Assembly: GCA_029938185.1 (NCBI GenBank)
Contig: JAOZVK010000005.1
Location: forward strand, 1-36,685
DNA: 36,685 bases
From: Bacteroidales bacterium
GTDB taxonomy: Bacteria > Bacteroidota > Bacteroidia > Bacteroidales > JAOZVK01
Direction: 5' to 3'
In this document: in pieces, positions 15,825-33,250 of the stretch
Numbering within the stretch: the stretch's first letter is position 1
Layout: each line of letters begins with the position of its first letter
Made by a program: the position numbers and the translations under genes
Notes under the pieces: model-generated
The model's input: the letters and a program-made list of their open reading frames with translations, nothing else
What the model was told of the DNA's origin: nothing
Databases searched by the model: none

Positions 15825-16022
15825 TAAGGTCTTCGACCTATTTATAGTTGCTTACGCATTAGTACAAAGAGAATTTAATCAGGAGATTACGAATAAGTAA
15901 ATGTCGGAAAACTTTTGTAAGCACCCATACAAAAGTTTTTTGGTATTCGTATTTATCCAATCAACTGTAATACATTCGTATACAAAAACGTGTAAGCCAC
16001 ATTAAATAGTTCGAAGACCTTA
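15825..16022. mobile_element. Full-length family A MITE-like element (~198 bp) flanked by TA
   Basis: Long imperfect inverted repeat TA-AGGTCTTCGACCTATTTATAGTTGCTTACGCATTAGTAC…TGTAAGCCACATTAAATAGTTCGAAGACCT-TA. Confidence 0.75.
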
Positions 16023-16211: not shown

Positions 16212-17834
16212 ATGTGTGGAATATTCGGAATAATTGGAAATAGAGAAGAAAAAGAAGCTCAAACATTATCAAAACGTATGAGCCATAGAGGACCTGATGA
16301 AAGAGGTTTACACATATCTCAAAATGGTTCAATATTATTACATGAGCGTCTATCAATAATTGATTTATCAACTGGCAAACAACCAATAAAAGGTAGCAAC
16401 AACGCATATGTTATTCATAATGGCGAGATATACAATCATCAAGAATTAAGAAGCGAACTTTCACACCATACATTTAATACAAATTCTGATAGCGAAATAA
16501 TTGTTCATTTATATGAAGAATACGGAACCGATTTTCTAAATAAATTAGATGGAGTATTTGTATTTGTTATTCTTGAAGGCGATTTTTTCATGGCTGCACG
16601 CGATCCTATAGGCGTAAAACCATTATATTATGGTACAGACAAAAATGGAAACATGTATTTTGCATCAGAGATGAAAGTAATTACAGACCAGTGTGATGAT
16701 TTTAAAGCATTCCCTCCCGGACATTACTATACCGAAAAAGAAGGATTTGTAAAATATTATAAACCAGAGTGGGAAGACCATAGCAAAGCTACAAAGAAAG
16801 TAGATTTAAAAGAAATTAGAGAATCGCTAACAGCAGCTACAAAAAAACGTTTAATGAGCGATGTTCCATTAGGTGTTTTATTATCGGGTGGACTTGACTC
16901 AAGTATAATTTCATCAATAACAAAAAGAGCTTTAACCGAAATGGGTATAGACGAACTTCATTCGTTTTCTATTGGAACAGGTGCAAACGCACCAGATTTA
17001 TTAGCAGCAAAAAAAGTTGCAAAACATATTGGTACAAAGCATCATGAAATATATTTCTCGGTAGAGCAAGGGATTGAAGCTATCGAAAAAATAATATGGC
17101 ATCTCGAAACATATGATGTTACTACAATAAGGGCTTCTACACCAATGTATTTTCTATCGAAAGCAATTACAGATATGGGAATAAAAGTAGTACTTTCGGG
17201 CGAGGGTGCTGATGAGATTTTTGGAGGATACTTATATTTCTATAATGCTCCATCGAACGCAGAGTTTCAAAAAGAAACTGTAAGTAGAGTACAACGATTA
17301 TCAACAGCTGATTGTTTAAGAGCTGACAAATCAACTATGGCTCACGGACTTGAAGCAAGAGTTCCATTTTTGGATAAGGAATTTATTGATGTTACTATGA
17401 AAATTGATCCACAAGATAAAAAACCTAATAAGCACACTGATAGACCTGAAAAATATATACTACGTAAAGCATTTGATGATAAAGAAAACCCATATATACC
17501 CGAGTCTGTATTATGGAGACAAAAAGAGCAATTTAGTGATGGCGTGGGTTATAGTTGGATTGATGGTTTGACAAATTATTGTAACTCAGTAGTAAGTGAT
17601 AACGAGTTTTCAAGAGCTTCTGAATTATATAAACATAACACTCCAACAACAAAAGAGGCATTTTTGTTTAGAAAAATTTTTGAAAAACATTACCCTCAAA
17701 AGTCGGCTATTGAGTCTGTTGTAAAATGGATTCCAAAATGGCAGTTCAATATTGACCCATCTGGCAGAGCTTGTGATGTGCATCTTGAAAATGATACAAT
17801 CAAAAAAGATAAAAAACGACTACGAAGTGCATAA
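16212..17834 (+). CDS. asnB: Asparagine synthase (glutamine-hydrolysing)
   Basis: MCGIFGIIG class II amidotransferase N-terminus; SGGLDSS PP-loop; LSGEGADEIFGGY. Confidence 0.93.
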   Translation: MCGIFGIIGNREEKEAQTLSKRMSHRGPDERGLHISQNGSILLHERLSIIDLSTGKQPIKGSNNAYVIHNGEIYNHQELRSELSHHTFNTNSDSEIIVHLYEEYGTDFLNKLDGVFVFVILEGDFFMAARDPIGVKPLYYGTDKNGNMYFASEMKVITDQCDDFKAFPPGHYYTEKEGFVKYYKPEWEDHSKATKKVDLKEIRESLTAATKKRLMSDVPLGVLLSGGLDSSIISSITKRALTEMGIDELHSFSIGTGANAPDLLAAKKVAKHIGTKHHEIYFSVEQGIEAIEKIIWHLETYDVTTIRASTPMYFLSKAITDMGIKVVLSGEGADEIFGGYLYFYNAPSNAEFQKETVSRVQRLSTADCLRADKSTMAHGLEARVPFLDKEFIDVTMKIDPQDKKPNKHTDRPEKYILRKAFDDKENPYIPESVLWRQKEQFSDGVGYSWIDGLTNYCNSVVSDNEFSRASELYKHNTPTTKEAFLFRKIFEKHYPQKSAIESVVKWIPKWQFNIDPSGRACDVHLENDTIKKDKKRLRSA

Positions 17835-18056
17835 GGTCTTCGACCTATTTATAGTTGCTTATTAGTACAAAGACAATTTAATCAGCAAGTTATGAATAGG
17901 CTAATGTCGAAAAACTTCAACCTGTGCAATCAAAAGTCCGATAGGACGAACTTAAGTACTGTTACAAAAATTTTTCGATATTTATTTATTAATAACTCAC
18001 TGATTCTGTTGTTTTTGTACTAATGCGTAAGCAACATTAAATATGTCCAAGACCTT
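17832..18056. mobile_element. Full-length family A MITE-like element (~225 bp) in the convergent asnB/AhpD-like intergenic space
   Basis: Left arm TAAGGTCTTCGACCTATTTATAGTTGC, right arm GCGTAAGCAACATTAAATATGTCCAAGACCTTA. Confidence 0.78.
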
Positions 18057-18057
18057 A

Positions 18058-22937: not shown

Positions 22938-25900
22938 ATGCAAAATACCGAAAAAAATCATACAAAAAAATATAAAGTTGGAATAGATGTAGGTTCTACG
23001 ACAGCAAAAATAGCTATACTTGACAATAATAACAATTTAATTCATTATGAATATGTAAGGCATAATACAAAAATTCATGAAACGGTTAATCTTCTAATAA
23101 AAAATTCGTTAACCAAGATAGGCAATTCGAAAATTAAAATTACAATTACAGGTTCGGCAGGTATTGGTATTTCAGAAAAAACAGGAATGCCATTTATTCA
23201 AGAGGTAGTTGCATCAACAGAAGTTGTAAAAAAGAGATATTCGCAGGTGAAAACCTTAATTGATATAGGTGGTGAAGATTCAAAAATGATTCTTTTTTAT
23301 GAAAAAAAATCGCCTGATATAAGAATGAATGGAAGTTGTGCTGGTGGAACAGGTGCTTTTATCGACCAAATAGCATCATTAATGAATATACCCATTATTG
23401 AATTTAATGAACTTGCAAAAAACTATTCTCAGATATATCCAATTGCTTCAAGATGTGGTGTTTTTGCTAAAACCGATGTACAAAACCTTTTGAGTAGAAA
23501 AATAAAAAAAGAAGATATAGCTGCATCTGTTTTTCATGCAGTTGCAATACAGACTATCAATACTCTTGCTCGTGGTTTTGATATTGTACCAAAGGTAATG
23601 TTTACTGGTGGACCTTTTGCTTTTTTATCAGAACTAAGTACAACTTTTATAAGAGATTTAAAATTAGATATTAGCGATATTGTTATTCCCGAAAATCCTG
23701 CACTTCTTCCAGCTATTGGTGCTGCTTTGTCCGACAATAAATTTGATTACACAAGCTTACAAGAGCAGTATAATAATATTGAAAAAGCAAGTAATATTGT
23801 TATAAAACCCAAAAATAGACTAAAACCACTTTTTAAAAGTAAGGCAGATTTTGAAAATTGGAATAATGAAAAAATTAGAACTAAAGTTCCCAAAGTACAT
23901 ATAAAAGATTATAAATCGCAGGATTGTTATATTGGAATAGATTCGGGTTCAACTACAACAAAAATATCAGTTATAGGGACAAATAAAGAATTATTATATA
24001 ATTATTATACTAATAGTAAGGGAAATCCAATTGATTCGGTAAAAAAAGGCTTGTTTGAATTTAGTGAAATACTAAAAAAGTATAATAAAAAAATAGATGT
24101 AAAATATACAGCAGTTACAGGTTATGGCGAAGATTTAATAAAAACTGCTTTAGGAATAGACCTTGGTATTGTCGAAACGATAGCACATTTTATGGCAGCC
24201 AAACATTTTAACAAAGATGTTAGCTTTATTATGGATATTGGTGGGCAGGATATGAAAGCAATATTTGTTGAAAACGGAGTAGTAAACCGAATAGATTTGA
24301 ATGAAGCATGTTCGTCTGGTTGTGGCTCATTTGTTGAAACATTCAGTAATTCGCTTGGGCATAAAATTGGTGATTTTGCTAATTTGGCTTGTCAAGCTCA
24401 GGCTCCTGCCGATTTGGGTACAAGATGCACAGTATTTATGAATTCTAAAGTAAAACAATCATTACGCGAAAATGCTAAAACAGAAGATATTGCAGCTGGT
24501 TTATCTATTTCTGTAATTAAAAATGCTTTGTTCAAGGTATTGAAATTAAGAGATATAACTGATCTTGGCGATAATATTGTAGTACAAGGTGGTACATTTA
24601 GAAACCCATCAATACTTAAAGCTTTAGAAAACCTAACAGAAAAAAAAGTTATTTGTACTGATATTCCAGAACAAATGGGTGCATATGGTGCAGCTTTAGC
24701 AGCTATTGATGAGTATTCAAAAAATAAGTTGGAGACTAAATTTGTAGAAATAGATAAATTAGATGATATAGATAAGTACAAATCAAAGCATCTTGTATGT
24801 AAGGCATGCGAAAATCGTTGTGCTGTAACTCAATTTAAGTTCAACAATAATAATACTTATTATTCAGGAAATAAATGCGAAAAAGTATTTTACAATAAAG
24901 GATTTAAAGCTGAAAAAGGACAAAATTTGTATGATTATAAATACAAGTTATTATTTAATCGTGATGTACAAAAGAATGAAAATACAAAAATAACTATCGG
25001 AATACCCAGAGTTTTAAACTTTTATGAAAATTATCCTTTTTGGAATAAACTACTAACCGAGAGTGGATTTAAAATTGAATTATCCTCAACATCAACAATG
25101 AAGTTATATGAAATAGGCTTAGGTACAGTAATGTCCGATAGTATTTGCTTTCCTGCAAAATTGGTACATGGTCATATAAGCGATTTGATAAACAAAAAAG
25201 TTGATAGAATTTTTTATCCAAATGTTATATTTCAGGCAAATGAATTTAACGAAGCCGAAAATCATTTCAATTGTCCGATTGTTAGTGGATATTCTGATGT
25301 TGTTAAAAGTGCAATAAACCCACAAAAAAAATATAATATTCCTGTTGATTCTCCAATTATAAGTTTTAAAGATGTAAATATGCTGAAAAAAGCATGTTAT
25401 AATTATCTAAAAAGCTTAGGAGTCAAAAAATCTGTTTTTAATAAAGCATTCGCATTGAGTTTAGATGCTCAGAAAAAGTTTAAAAATGATATGAATCAAA
25501 AAACCAAGCAGGTAATTAATAGTGCTAAAAAAAATAATGAACTATTGATTGTTTTGGCTGGTCGTCCATATCATGCAGACCCTTTGATAAATCAAAAAAC
25601 ACCCGATATTTTATCCGATTTGGGTGCGCATGTTATTCCTGATGATTCGGTACCAAGATTTGAAGAAAATGGACTTAATGATTTACAAATAATAACACAA
25701 TGGTCATATCCAAACCGAATATATAATGCAGCGCAATGGACTGCAAGTATGCCCAATAATGTTCAATTTGTTCAGTTTAACTCATTTGGTTGTGGACCCG
25801 ATGCAATAACTATTGATGAGAGTGTTGAAATATTGAAAGCAAAAGGAAAAAATCATACTTTAATAAGAATTGATGAAATAACAAGCACTGGTTCTGTGCG

Positions 25901-27236
25901 ATTGAGATTGCGCTCAATGCTCGAATCTTTACGAATTAGAGGAAACTCTTATAAACTAAAAAGTAATGCAAGAATTACTACAAGAAATTTTGAAAAAGAG
26001 GACAAACAAAAAACAATTATTGCGCCCTATTTTGCCGAAATTTATTCAGATTTGTTTCCAAGTATTTTTAAAGTAGCAGGTTACAAATATATAAATTTAC
26101 CAAAACCCGATAAAGAATCGGTACAGTATGGATTGAGGTATGCAAATAATGAAATATGTTATCCAGCTACAATTATTATTGGTGATATTATAAAAGCTTT
26201 AAAATCTGACAATTATAATTTAAACGATATAGCAGTTGGTATTTCTCAAACAGGTGGACAGTGTAGAGCATCAACTTATCTTTCGTTAATAAAAAAAGGA
26301 ATGATTGCTTCTGGTTTTAAGGATATTCCCATAGTTGCAGTTGGTACGGCAGGAAAAACAATTAACCCTCAGCCTGGTTTTGATATTGATTGGAACGATA
26401 TACTCCCCATAACATTTATGGCAATGTTGTATGGCGATTCTATTGCAAAAATGTATTATTCGATGGTAGTACGCGAAAAAAACAAAGGAGAAAGTAAAAA
26501 ACTACTTGATAAATACATTAATGAAGTAAAATATTATATCGAAAATAAAGATATTAAAGGCGTTTATAATTTGCTTGAAAAAGCTGTTATTGAGTTTAAT
26601 AGAATTGTAATTTATGACAAACATTATCCTAAAATTGGTATAGTGGGGGAAATTTTTGTTAAATATAATTCTTTTGGTAATCAATATATAGTAGAATGGT
26701 TAATTGAGCAGGGTGTAGAAGTTGTTGTACCGCCAATATTGGATTTCTTTATGCAAGAATTTGTAAATGTGGGTGTTAATAGAAAATTAAATTTAGCTAA
26801 AAACTCAACCGTAACAAAATTGTTTTTATGGTATCTTGAAAAGAAAGCTAACAGACATATAAATTCAGCCGAAAAAATATTAAAAAAATTCAAATTCTAT
26901 AATCCTCATCATAAAATCAGATATTTAGCCAAAAAAGCTGAGGAAATATTAAGTCTATCAAATCAATTTGGCGAAGGCTGGCTTATTCCTGCCGAAATAT
27001 CTATGTTTGCCGAAGAGGGAGTAAATAATGTTATTAGTGTTCAACCATTTGGCTGTATTGCAAATCATGTTATATCAAAAGGTATTGAAAAAAAAATTAA
27101 GGATTTATTCCCAAATATGAATCTTTTATTTCTTGATTTTGATGATGGTGCCAGTGAAGTTAATATTCTTAATAGACTGCATTTTATGCTTAAAAATGTG
27201 CAAGAAGAAGTTTTAAAGTCTTCGACCTATTTGTAG
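22938..27236 (+). CDS. Acyl-CoA dehydratase activase-related fusion protein (two BadF/BadG/BcrA/BcrD ATPase modules + DUF2229/HgdB-like region)
   Basis: GIDVGSTTAKIAILD and GIDSGSTTTKISVIG ASKHA motifs; NGSCAGGTGAFIDQ, EACSSGCGSFVETF; GIPRVLNFYENYPFW. Confidence 0.9.
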   Translation: MQNTEKNHTKKYKVGIDVGSTTAKIAILDNNNNLIHYEYVRHNTKIHETVNLLIKNSLTKIGNSKIKITITGSAGIGISEKTGMPFIQEVVASTEVVKKRYSQVKTLIDIGGEDSKMILFYEKKSPDIRMNGSCAGGTGAFIDQIASLMNIPIIEFNELAKNYSQIYPIASRCGVFAKTDVQNLLSRKIKKEDIAASVFHAVAIQTINTLARGFDIVPKVMFTGGPFAFLSELSTTFIRDLKLDISDIVIPENPALLPAIGAALSDNKFDYTSLQEQYNNIEKASNIVIKPKNRLKPLFKSKADFENWNNEKIRTKVPKVHIKDYKSQDCYIGIDSGSTTTKISVIGTNKELLYNYYTNSKGNPIDSVKKGLFEFSEILKKYNKKIDVKYTAVTGYGEDLIKTALGIDLGIVETIAHFMAAKHFNKDVSFIMDIGGQDMKAIFVENGVVNRIDLNEACSSGCGSFVETFSNSLGHKIGDFANLACQAQAPADLGTRCTVFMNSKVKQSLRENAKTEDIAAGLSISVIKNALFKVLKLRDITDLGDNIVVQGGTFRNPSILKALENLTEKKVICTDIPEQMGAYGAALAAIDEYSKNKLETKFVEIDKLDDIDKYKSKHLVCKACENRCAVTQFKFNNNNTYYSGNKCEKVFYNKGFKAEKGQNLYDYKYKLLFNRDVQKNENTKITIGIPRVLNFYENYPFWNKLLTESGFKIELSSTSTMKLYEIGLGTVMSDSICFPAKLVHGHISDLINKKVDRIFYPNVIFQANEFNEAENHFNCPIVSGYSDVVKSAINPQKKYNIPVDSPIISFKDVNMLKKACYNYLKSLGVKKSVFNKAFALSLDAQKKFKNDMNQKTKQVINSAKKNNELLIVLAGRPYHADPLINQKTPDILSDLGAHVIPDDSVPRFEENGLNDLQIITQWSYPNRIYNAAQWTASMPNNVQFVQFNSFGCGPDAITIDESVEILKAKGKNHTLIRIDEITSTGSVRLRLRSMLESLRIRGNSYKLKSNARITTRNFEKEDKQKTIIAPYFAEIYSDLFPSIFKVAGYKYINLPKPDKESVQYGLRYANNEICYPATIIIGDIIKALKSDNYNLNDIAVGISQTGGQCRASTYLSLIKKGMIASGFKDIPIVAVGTAGKTINPQPGFDIDWNDILPITFMAMLYGDSIAKMYYSMVVREKNKGESKKLLDKYINEVKYYIENKDIKGVYNLLEKAVIEFNRIVIYDKHYPKIGIVGEIFVKYNSFGNQYIVEWLIEQGVEVVVPPILDFFMQEFVNVGVNRKLNLAKNSTVTKLFLWYLEKKANRHINSAEKILKKFKFYNPHHKIRYLAKKAEEILSLSNQFGEGWLIPAEISMFAEEGVNNVISVQPFGCIANHVISKGIEKKIKDLFPNMNLLFLDFDDGASEVNILNRLHFMLKNVQEEVLKSSTYL

Positions 27237-27317
27237 TTGCTTATGCATTAGTCAAAAGATGACTTAATCAGAAAGTTATGAATAAGTAAATGTCGAAAAA
27301 CTTTTGTAACAGTACTT
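27215..27317. mobile_element. Family A element, left part; contains the stop codon of the activase gene
   Basis: TAAAGTCTTCGACCTATTTGTAGTTGCTTATGCATTAGTC…ATGTCGAAAAACTTTTGTAACAGTACTT; continues at ~27475-27506 after the nested insertion. Confidence 0.72.
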
Positions 27318-27474
27318 TGGAATAGGTATTAAATAAATGTCCGTTTTGATAGATTAGTTTGTTATTTTACAACTTACAAAAAGTCGCAAATAGTGAACTA
27401 TTTAAGACTTTTTTTAAGGTAGTAAAATGACAAAATAATGACACAAAATAGGGCAGTTATTTGATACCTGTTCC
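27318..27474. mobile_element. ~157-bp long palindromic element nested in the family A copy
   Basis: GGAATAGGTATTAAATAAATG…CAGTTATTTGATACCTGTTCC terminal inverted repeats; inner stem AAAAAGTCgcAAATAGTgaACTATTTaaGACTTTTT. Confidence 0.7.
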
Positions 27475-27533
27475 TTAGTTCGTCCTATCGGACTTTGATT
27501 ACACAGATAAAATATTATTATTATAATAAAAAC

Positions 27534-28607
27534 ATGAAAATTTATATAAATTTATTTTTACTATTAACAATATTAATATTTAGTAATATAAATACAAATG
27601 CCCAAATTGTAAGCTACAGTAATGAATATCTGAAAATTGGAGTTGGGGCAAAACAAATAGGTATGGCTGGCAGCAGTGTTGCATCTACTAACAATTCAGA
27701 GTCAGTATATTGGAATCCGGCAGGATTAAACTATATGAGCAAAAAATATGATGTATCTTTAATGCATTCTGAATATTTTGCTGGTATTGCAAAATATGAT
27801 AATGTAAATTTTGCTTATAAACATACAGATTCAGTTGCATTTGGAATTTCATTTTTAAGATTTGGTGTCGATGATATTCAAAATACTTTAGAACTTATTG
27901 ACGAAAACGGAAATATTGATTATAGTAGAATCAAATCATTTTCGGTTGCTGATTATGCTTTATTATTATCATATTCAAGAAAAACAAAAATAAAAGGATT
28001 GAGTTATGGAATAAATATGAAAATTATTTACAGACATCAAGGAGAATTTGCAAACGCCTATGGTTTTGGTTTAGATTTGGGAGTTTTGTACAGTAAAAAA
28101 AAGTTGAAAATTGCAGCAATGATACGTGATATTAGTACAACTTTCAATGCTTGGGTTTTTAATAAAGAAATTCTAAAAAGTACGTTTAGCATAACTAATA
28201 ATGAACTGCCCAACAATTCTTTAGAAATCACTCTCCCCTCAGTTGTTTTAGGAATAGCATATGATTTTAATATATACAAAAAAATAAGCGTAAATGCAGA
28301 AATTGATGCTGATATAACTTTCGATGGAAGACGAAATGTATTAATAAGCAAAGAACCTGTAAGTTCAAATCTAAGTTTAGGTTTAGAATTTAATTATAAT
28401 AATTTGATATTCGTAAGAACAGGAGTTACAAATTTTCAAAGAATTAGTGATTTTGATAAATCAGAAAAAATAATATTTCAACCAAATATTGGAATAGGTG
28501 TAAAACTATTTAATTTTTCGATAGATTATGCTTTAAGTAACTTAGGAAAACAATCAACAGTTTTTTATTCAAATATTTTTTCCATCAGATATAGTTTTGA
28601 TATATAA
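27534..28607 (+). CDS. PorV/PorQ family outer-membrane protein
   Basis: Signal peptide from ATG 27534 (MKIYINLFLLLTILIFS); EYLKIGVGAKQIGMAGSSVASTNNSESVYWNPAGL. The ORF track starts 13 codons earlier at a TTG. Confidence 0.82.
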   Translation: MKIYINLFLLLTILIFSNINTNAQIVSYSNEYLKIGVGAKQIGMAGSSVASTNNSESVYWNPAGLNYMSKKYDVSLMHSEYFAGIAKYDNVNFAYKHTDSVAFGISFLRFGVDDIQNTLELIDENGNIDYSRIKSFSVADYALLLSYSRKTKIKGLSYGINMKIIYRHQGEFANAYGFGLDLGVLYSKKKLKIAAMIRDISTTFNAWVFNKEILKSTFSITNNELPNNSLEITLPSVVLGIAYDFNIYKKISVNAEIDADITFDGRRNVLISKEPVSSNLSLGLEFNYNNLIFVRTGVTNFQRISDFDKSEKIIFQPNIGIGVKLFNFSIDYALSNLGKQSTVFYSNIFSIRYSFDI

Positions 28608-28713
28608 GGAAATTATGAATTATGAATTACGAATTATGAATTGGTTTACACTATATATAAGTATCTTACAAAAAACAAATTGGAAAGTTATTTTTTAACG
28701 ATTTCTTAACATG

Positions 28714-33076: not shown

Positions 33077-33141
33077 AAATGGCAATCAAATTTTATTAGT
33101 TAAAGATGAGTATGTGGTGATTTATTTCCATAATAGTAGTC

Positions 33142-33236
33142 TAACAAAAGTTTTTCGACATTCCTATTTGTTAATTTGCATATTGTTAGAGTATTAATTA
33201 AATACATAAGCAATATTAAATAGGTCGAAGACCTTA
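33142..33236. repeat. Family A repeat, right half, just upstream of the second ligase gene
   Basis: CAAAAGTTTTTCGACATTCCTATTTG…CATAAGCAATATTAAATAGGTCGAAGACCTTA. Confidence 0.72.
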
Positions 33237-33250
33237 AATAAATAAAGAAT

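What the first reader, a model, noticed from the sequence alone, without database searches (positions are those of the whole stretch)
27318..27474. Nested palindromic element inserted into a family A element, with the uninterrupted site visible in the same window
The element at 17832-18056 contains (reverse complement) GTAACAGTACTTAAGTTCGTCCTATCGGACTTTTGATTGCACAG. At 27306-27506 the same sequence is split: GTAACAGTACTT | 157 bp | TTAGTTCGTCCTATCGGACTTTGATTACACAG. The 157-bp insert has ~21-bp terminal inverted repeats (GGAATAGGTATTAAATAAATG / GGAACAGGTATCAAATAACTG as reverse complement), pairs along most of its length, and is bordered by a possible 2-bp TT duplication. This is direct evidence of past mobility.
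Basis: seen in the sequence. Interest (0 to 1): 0.7.

Follow-up and report, generated by a model that had tools for sequence, protein, structure and literature searches.

The report
Jumping hairpin inside another repeat
A 156-base DNA hairpin that cannot copy itself has jumped into an older repeat; it belongs to a previously undescribed (as far as I could search) family of tiny mobile elements, spread over about 24 genera of one bacterial order, whose middle is kept as an RNA-like hairpin while its ends are swapped to suit different transposases.

Summary
The insert is 156 bp (27319-27474), a near-complete hairpin. Its 18/21-bp terminal inverted repeats are bordered by a 3-bp TTA/TAA target duplication (here TTT/TTA), not a 2-bp TT. 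The same genome holds 18 other near-full copies (97-99% identical); 17 of the 19 have exact TTA/TAA duplications. It is a MITE. The best-supported mobiliser is an ISAzo13-family transposase: a decayed ISAzo13 copy in this genome carries the MITE's left end (26/29 bases), and six ISAzo13 elements of the order share its end design (AATAA at end positions 14-18 on at least one end, 3-bp duplication). The surprise is what it belongs to. MITEs of about 158 bp with the same core but different ends occur in 28 of 393 genomes (24 genera) of the order and in 1 of about 395 others sampled from the phylum. The core hairpin keeps its pairs through compensatory changes. It folds better as RNA on one strand in 32 of 32 distinct elements, which points to selection on a transcribed hairpin. 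That function and the transposase are inferred, not shown. I found no description of ISAzo13-linked MITEs in the papers searched.

The parts
27319..27474 (+). MITE-A, 156 bp non-autonomous hairpin element (the insert)
   Evidence: 18 other near-full copies in the genome at 97-99% identity; fold z = -10.6
27319..27339 (+). left terminal inverted repeat GGAATAGGTATTAAATAAATG (AATAA at positions 14-18)
   Evidence: 18/21 identical to the right end
27454..27474 (-). right terminal inverted repeat GGAACAGGTATCAAATAACTG (AATAA at positions 14-18)
27316..27318 (+). left copy of the 3-bp target duplication, TTT (one change from TTA)
   Evidence: other copies have TTA or TAA on both sides
27475..27477 (+). 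right copy of the 3-bp target duplication, TTA
27350..27449 (+). hairpin core shared with MITE-B, MITE-C and elements in other genera
   Evidence: (89% to MITE-B); compensatory pairs
27214..27318 (+). R repeat arm that received the insertion (reverse orientation of the AAATAGGTCGAAGACCTTA-ended repeat)
   Evidence: repeats D5 and I2; R end has 1661 matches genome-wide
27475..27506 (+). linker of the composite host repeat, continuing after the insertion
   Evidence: alignment to 17832-18056
17832..18056 (-). uninterrupted composite host repeat (the empty site)
28683..28705 (-). end of a MITE-D copy (GAAATCGTTAAAAAATAACTTTC, one mismatch to the end of the ISAzo13 element on C19)

Best explanation
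The insert is a 156-bp MITE moved in trans by an ISAzo13-family DDE transposase into a TTA target at the end of an older repeat. Shown by sequence: insertion with a 3-bp duplication, recent multiplication in this genome, ends that follow the ISAzo13 design, and homology of the core to MITEs with other ends in about 24 genera of the order. Inferred: ISAzo13 proteins cut at these ends; the lineage lasts because its core, when transcribed from one strand, folds into a long mRNA-borne hairpin (a stability, processing or termination element) that makes insertions between genes tolerable or useful; and the ends change as transposases come and go, so a conserved RNA-like core rides on exchangeable transposase-recognition ends.
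For: Copies and duplications; empty site. Parent link: decayed ISAzo13 copy C443 with the MITE's left end, 26/29 bases. The ISAzo13 element on C19 has perfect 29-bp inverted repeats and a 3-bp duplication, and its end heads a second MITE family with over 100 copies at TTA/TAA sites. Six ISAzo13 elements of the order have a 3-bp duplication and AATAA at end positions 14-18: both ends in five, one end in G297 (NCBIfam NF033519 above cut-off for those of G000, G173 and G383). Of 60 fetched MITEs, 48 have an exact 3-bp duplication and 49 have AATAA at that position on each end, median length 159. MITE and ISAzo13 genomes overlap: 7 against 1.9 expected, P = 0.0014. Core: compensatory changes in 21/44 and 27/40 pairs; covariation score 0.375 against 0.161 +/- 0.013 in shuffles. 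Plus strand folds better in 32/32 elements, mean -52.1 against -38.4 kcal/mol, with orientation confirmed by a sequence-only model.
Against: Twenty-one of the 28 MITE-bearing genomes show no ISAzo13 gene; many are fragmented, but the absence is not explained. No intact ISAzo13 with MITE-A's own end is in the assembly. A few core relatives (G239, G359, G094) have CTA|GTGTYAAGTCAAG-like ends that do not fit ISAzo13, so the core is not tied to one transposase family. Strand preference is weaker in unbiased counts (G.T 37 against A.C 13 in pairs predicted on both strands; 43 against 37 in minus-strand pairs). Orientation to neighbouring genes is only suggestive (19 same against 9 opposite, P = 0.09). 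The terminator scan found nothing and Rfam had no match near its cut-offs.
Confidence: 0.72

Rival explanations
1. Same MITE, but moved by a different DDE transposase family; the likeness to ISAzo13 ends is convergence on a TTA target and A/T-rich ends.
For: Most MITE-bearing genomes lack a detected ISAzo13 gene; a minority of core relatives have CTA-type ends.
Against: Decayed ISAzo13 with MITE-A's end in the same genome; same AATAA register and 3-bp duplication in several ISAzo13 elements; MITE-D carries the exact end of the C19 ISAzo13; overlap of genomes P = 0.0014.
Confidence: 0.17
2. The core's compensatory changes and one-strand stability come from mutation and templated repair of the palindrome (hairpin correction, transcription-linked deamination), not from selection on an RNA.
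For: Palindromes can be corrected from their own other arm, which copies changes to both sides; G.T excess on one strand could follow transcription-linked mutation (both from general knowledge, not tested here).
Against: Two T.G wobbles in tandem are held in many genera (UG in 16 and 19 of 31 rows), which correction would erase; plus strand more stable in 32/32 elements across the sampled genera.
Confidence: 0.3
3. Deletion rather than insertion: 17832-18056 lost the 156-bp segment.
For: None beyond the two-copy comparison.
Against: 18 other near-full copies of the segment at other sites, nearly all with exact TTA/TAA duplications.
Confidence: 0.01

Closest known systems
ISAzo13 family insertion sequences (PF07592, NCBIfam NF033519)
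   Same: End design (AATAA at positions 14-18), 3-bp duplication, TTA/TAA target; one decayed member carries MITE-A's left end
   Different: MITE-A has no transposase gene, and its core resembles no ISAzo13 interior seen here
ERIC/IRU, Correia/NEMIS, RUP and YPAL elements (bacterial MITEs whose transcripts form long hairpins; reviewed in PMC2229807, PMC10969869)
   Same: About 100-170 bp, mostly between genes, palindromic, stable RNA hairpin; orientation matters for the ERIC effect on mRNA (PMC2229807)
   Different: Of those I saw in PMC2229807, Correia/NEMIS and ERIC are listed with 5'-TA-3' at their termini and they occur in other phyla; here the target is TTA/TAA, the core is shared across about 24 genera while the ends differ, and the likely partner is ISAzo13
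REP elements (PMC3733652)
   Same: Many small palindromic repeats between genes
   Different: REPs are 20-40 bp; MITE-A is 156 bp with terminal inverted repeats and target duplications

Membership tests
MITE (non-autonomous DDE element) | Short, no transposase gene, multiple copies | tested here: met
   156 bp; 19 near-full copies at 97-100% to the window copy
MITE (non-autonomous DDE element) | Terminal inverted repeats and constant-length target duplication | tested here: met
   18/21 ends; exact 3-bp duplication in 17/19 copies
MITE (non-autonomous DDE element) | Ends shared with an autonomous partner | tested here: inconclusive
   Only a decayed ISAzo13 copy with 26/29 bases of the left end; no intact partner with these exact ends in the assembly
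MITE (non-autonomous DDE element) | Moved in trans by the partner transposase | not testable with these tools
   Needs a transposition assay
ISAzo13-dependent element | 3-bp target duplication | tested here: met
   for the MITE; for six ISAzo13 elements of the order
ISAzo13-dependent element | Inverted-repeat design of local ISAzo13 elements | tested here: met
   AATAA at positions 14-18 of both ends
ISAzo13 insertion sequence | Encodes an ISAzo13 transposase | tested here: not met
   156-bp hairpin with no room for a transposase; it is not an IS
ERIC-like RNA-level element | Transcribed hairpin that changes mRNA stability depending on orientation | not testable with these tools
   Only indirect: covariation and one-strand stability
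Known Rfam RNA | Match to a curated family | tested here: not met
   No match near any gathering score

The most novel reading that the evidence does not exclude
An order-wide mobile RNA element: a structured, transcribed RNA hairpin of nearly constant length (about 158 bp) that persists by exchanging its transposase-recognition ends between ISAzo13 lineages, and in a few genomes apparently a different transposase family, while selection keeps the RNA core.
Probability: 0.4. Interest if true: 0.75.

Novelty: new variant of a known kind. Interest (0 to 1): 0.52.

Why it matters
MITEs are usually thought of as short-lived derivatives that share ends with a parent IS and decay inside. Here the pattern is reversed: the inside is conserved over about 24 genera and shows pair-preserving, one-strand evolution, while the ends vary. 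If true, it offers a concrete system for asking whether bacterial MITEs persist because their transcripts do something. It also gives ISAzo13, a little-studied IS family, a set of dependent elements with a readable end code (variable positions 3-12, fixed AATAA, TTA target).

Tried and rejected
Deletion model: rejected. A pattern scan of 85,462 species genomes with MITE-A's exact end gave one hit, in an alphaproteobacterial contig; the surrounding 222 bases show no second end, and a hit or two is expected by chance (the expectation is my own estimate). C436 remnant: MITE right arm fused to a short reading frame, no Pfam match. Insertion preference for R repeats: 6 of 19 copies lie within 20 bp of R, but R is dense between genes, so no preference is claimed. 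Intrinsic terminator: none by the simple scan, although an A-tract and a T-tract flank the apical stem. Rfam: three hits far below their cut-offs, treated as chance. One early ISAzo13 end search used wrong locus orientations and was redone (replaced).

Full report
What is there. The window is contig C151 of a 5.72-Mb, 697-contig assembly. It encodes a type IX secretion PorV2 protein downstream of the insert, so the host is most likely a member of the Bacteroidota. At 27319-27474 lies a 156-bp element that folds on itself almost end to end (DNA fold z = -10.6). Its neighbours, joined across it, align in one piece to the reverse complement of 17832-18056. The target duplication is 3 bp, TTT/TTA here; in the 19 near-full genomic copies it is an exact TTA or TAA in 17. 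The copies are 97-100% identical to the window copy, so they spread recently.

Related elements in the same genome. MITE-B (also 156 bp, ends GGGGACTCGAA) shares the core at 89% and mostly has TTA or TAA on both sides too. MITE-C (ends GTGAAAAT) shares it more distantly and also has TTA/TAA duplications. MITE-D is different inside (about 95 bp), but its 23-nt left end has 132 matches with up to 2 mismatches, against 0 for the control, and it sits in TTA/TAA sites.

The likely transposase. A decayed ISAzo13 gene on C443 (PF07592, 144 bits) lies behind the end GGAATCGGTATTAAATAAATGCCCG, 26/29 bases of MITE-A's left end. The only near-intact ISAzo13 found in the genome, on C19, has perfect 29-bp ends GGAATCGTTAAAAAATAACTTTCCCATTT, a 3-bp duplication TGT and a transposase split over two frames; its end is the one used by MITE-D. 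In other genomes of the order, ISAzo13 elements in G173, G383, G098, G279 and G297 have 3-bp TTA/TAA duplications and AATAA at positions 14-18 of the ends, one end only in G297. The C19, G173 and G383 proteins match NCBIfam's ISAzo13 model above its cut-off. MITE-A, -B, -C and most elements of other genera keep AATAA at exactly that place, while positions 3-12 differ between families. I read this as an end code, with the variable part setting which transposase recognises which MITE; that is inference.

Distribution. BLAST with MITE-A found matches in 13 of 393 order genomes, G000 included; a few of the weakest are not MITEs. A covariance model built from 15 elements found 28 of 393, in 24 genera. 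Sampling the phylum gave only one genome besides the window's own (Fisher P about 7e-8 for order against the rest). Of 60 fetched copies, median length is 159 bp (155-173), 48 have an exact 3-bp duplication, and 49 have AATAA at each end. Four elements (L259 and L272 in G239, L273 in G359, L277 in G094) have CTA|GTGTYAAGTCAAG-like ends instead, so the core has apparently been joined to ends of a different kind. A sequence-only model also recovers the 23 more distant elements tested and gives the same orientation for every one, so homology does not rest on the structure model.

The core. In a 15-row alignment 21 of 44 pairs, and in a 31-row alignment (one row entered twice) 27 of 40, show changes on both sides that keep the pair. 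Shuffles give 0.161 +/- 0.013 against an observed covariation score of 0.375, and sliding the partners destroys it. All 32 non-redundant elements fold better as RNA on the plus strand than on the minus strand (mean -52.1 against -38.4 kcal/mol), including the 9 whose orientation came from BLAST or from sequence alone. The cause is that mismatches in the palindrome are more often G.T than A.C on the plus strand, that is G.U in an RNA: 37 G.T against 13 A.C in pairs predicted on both strands, 43 against 37 in the least favourable count. Selection on a DNA cruciform would treat both strands alike; selection on a transcript would not. Mutational bias and hairpin-templated correction are not excluded. 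Among copies between genes running the same way, the plus strand follows the genes in 19 and opposes them in 9 (P = 0.09; 12 against 3 in this genome, P = 0.035). The gene calls behind this are rough.

What it is, and what it is like. It meets the MITE criteria that could be tested. It works like the ERIC/Correia/RUP/YPAL group, small mobile hairpins seen in transcripts (PMC2229807, PMC10969869), but it was not shown to belong to any of them. The 2024 review of prokaryotic MITEs does not mention ISAzo13 in its main text, and a full-text search for ISAzo13 with MITE returned one paper, whose passages on the two terms do not describe such elements. Papers outside that library were not searched.

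Limits. The genome is fragmented and many contigs end inside these repeats. Listings are capped (up to 7 scored copies per genome). The transposase assignment, the RNA role and the exchange of ends are inferences from sequence.

Noticed in passing
window 27214-27318, 1848-1952, 15825-15921, 17954-18057, 33135-33238 and others: The R repeat (about 103 bp, ending AAATAGGTCGAAGACCTTA) has 1661 matches with up to 2 mismatches in 5.72 Mb, one per 3.4 kb, against 0 for the control. It is itself mobile: copies lie inside MITE-B (C487), MITE-D (C384) and the decayed ISAzo13 (C443). Its mobilising enzyme was not looked for.
   Followed up: partly
window 28683-28705 and G000 genome-wide: MITE-D: about 95-100 bp, over 100 copies, left end identical to the C19 ISAzo13 element over 24 bases, right half made of variable AATTCGTAATT repeats.
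   Followed up: partly
L110 (G000:C645:2680-3100): A MITE-B copy carries another insert of about 160 bp containing a GC-rich hairpin (ACTGTCGGTGTGGC...GCCGACAGT); a further nested insertion.
   Followed up: no
L259, L272 (G239), L273 (G359), L277 (G094): Elements with the same core but CTA|GTGTYAAGTCAAG-like ends, suggesting a different transposase family.
   Followed up: no
L058 (G000:C436:1990-2140): MITE-A right arm (59 bp) fused to a short reading frame RERKNIYNYPLLPECIKRKRKLIRPPGSKNDN without a Pfam match.
   Followed up: partly
window 22938-27236 and 27534-28607: The composite repeat with its nested MITE separates a 1432-aa acyl-CoA dehydratase activase-like gene from a PorV2 (type IX secretion) gene on the same strand.
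   Followed up: partly
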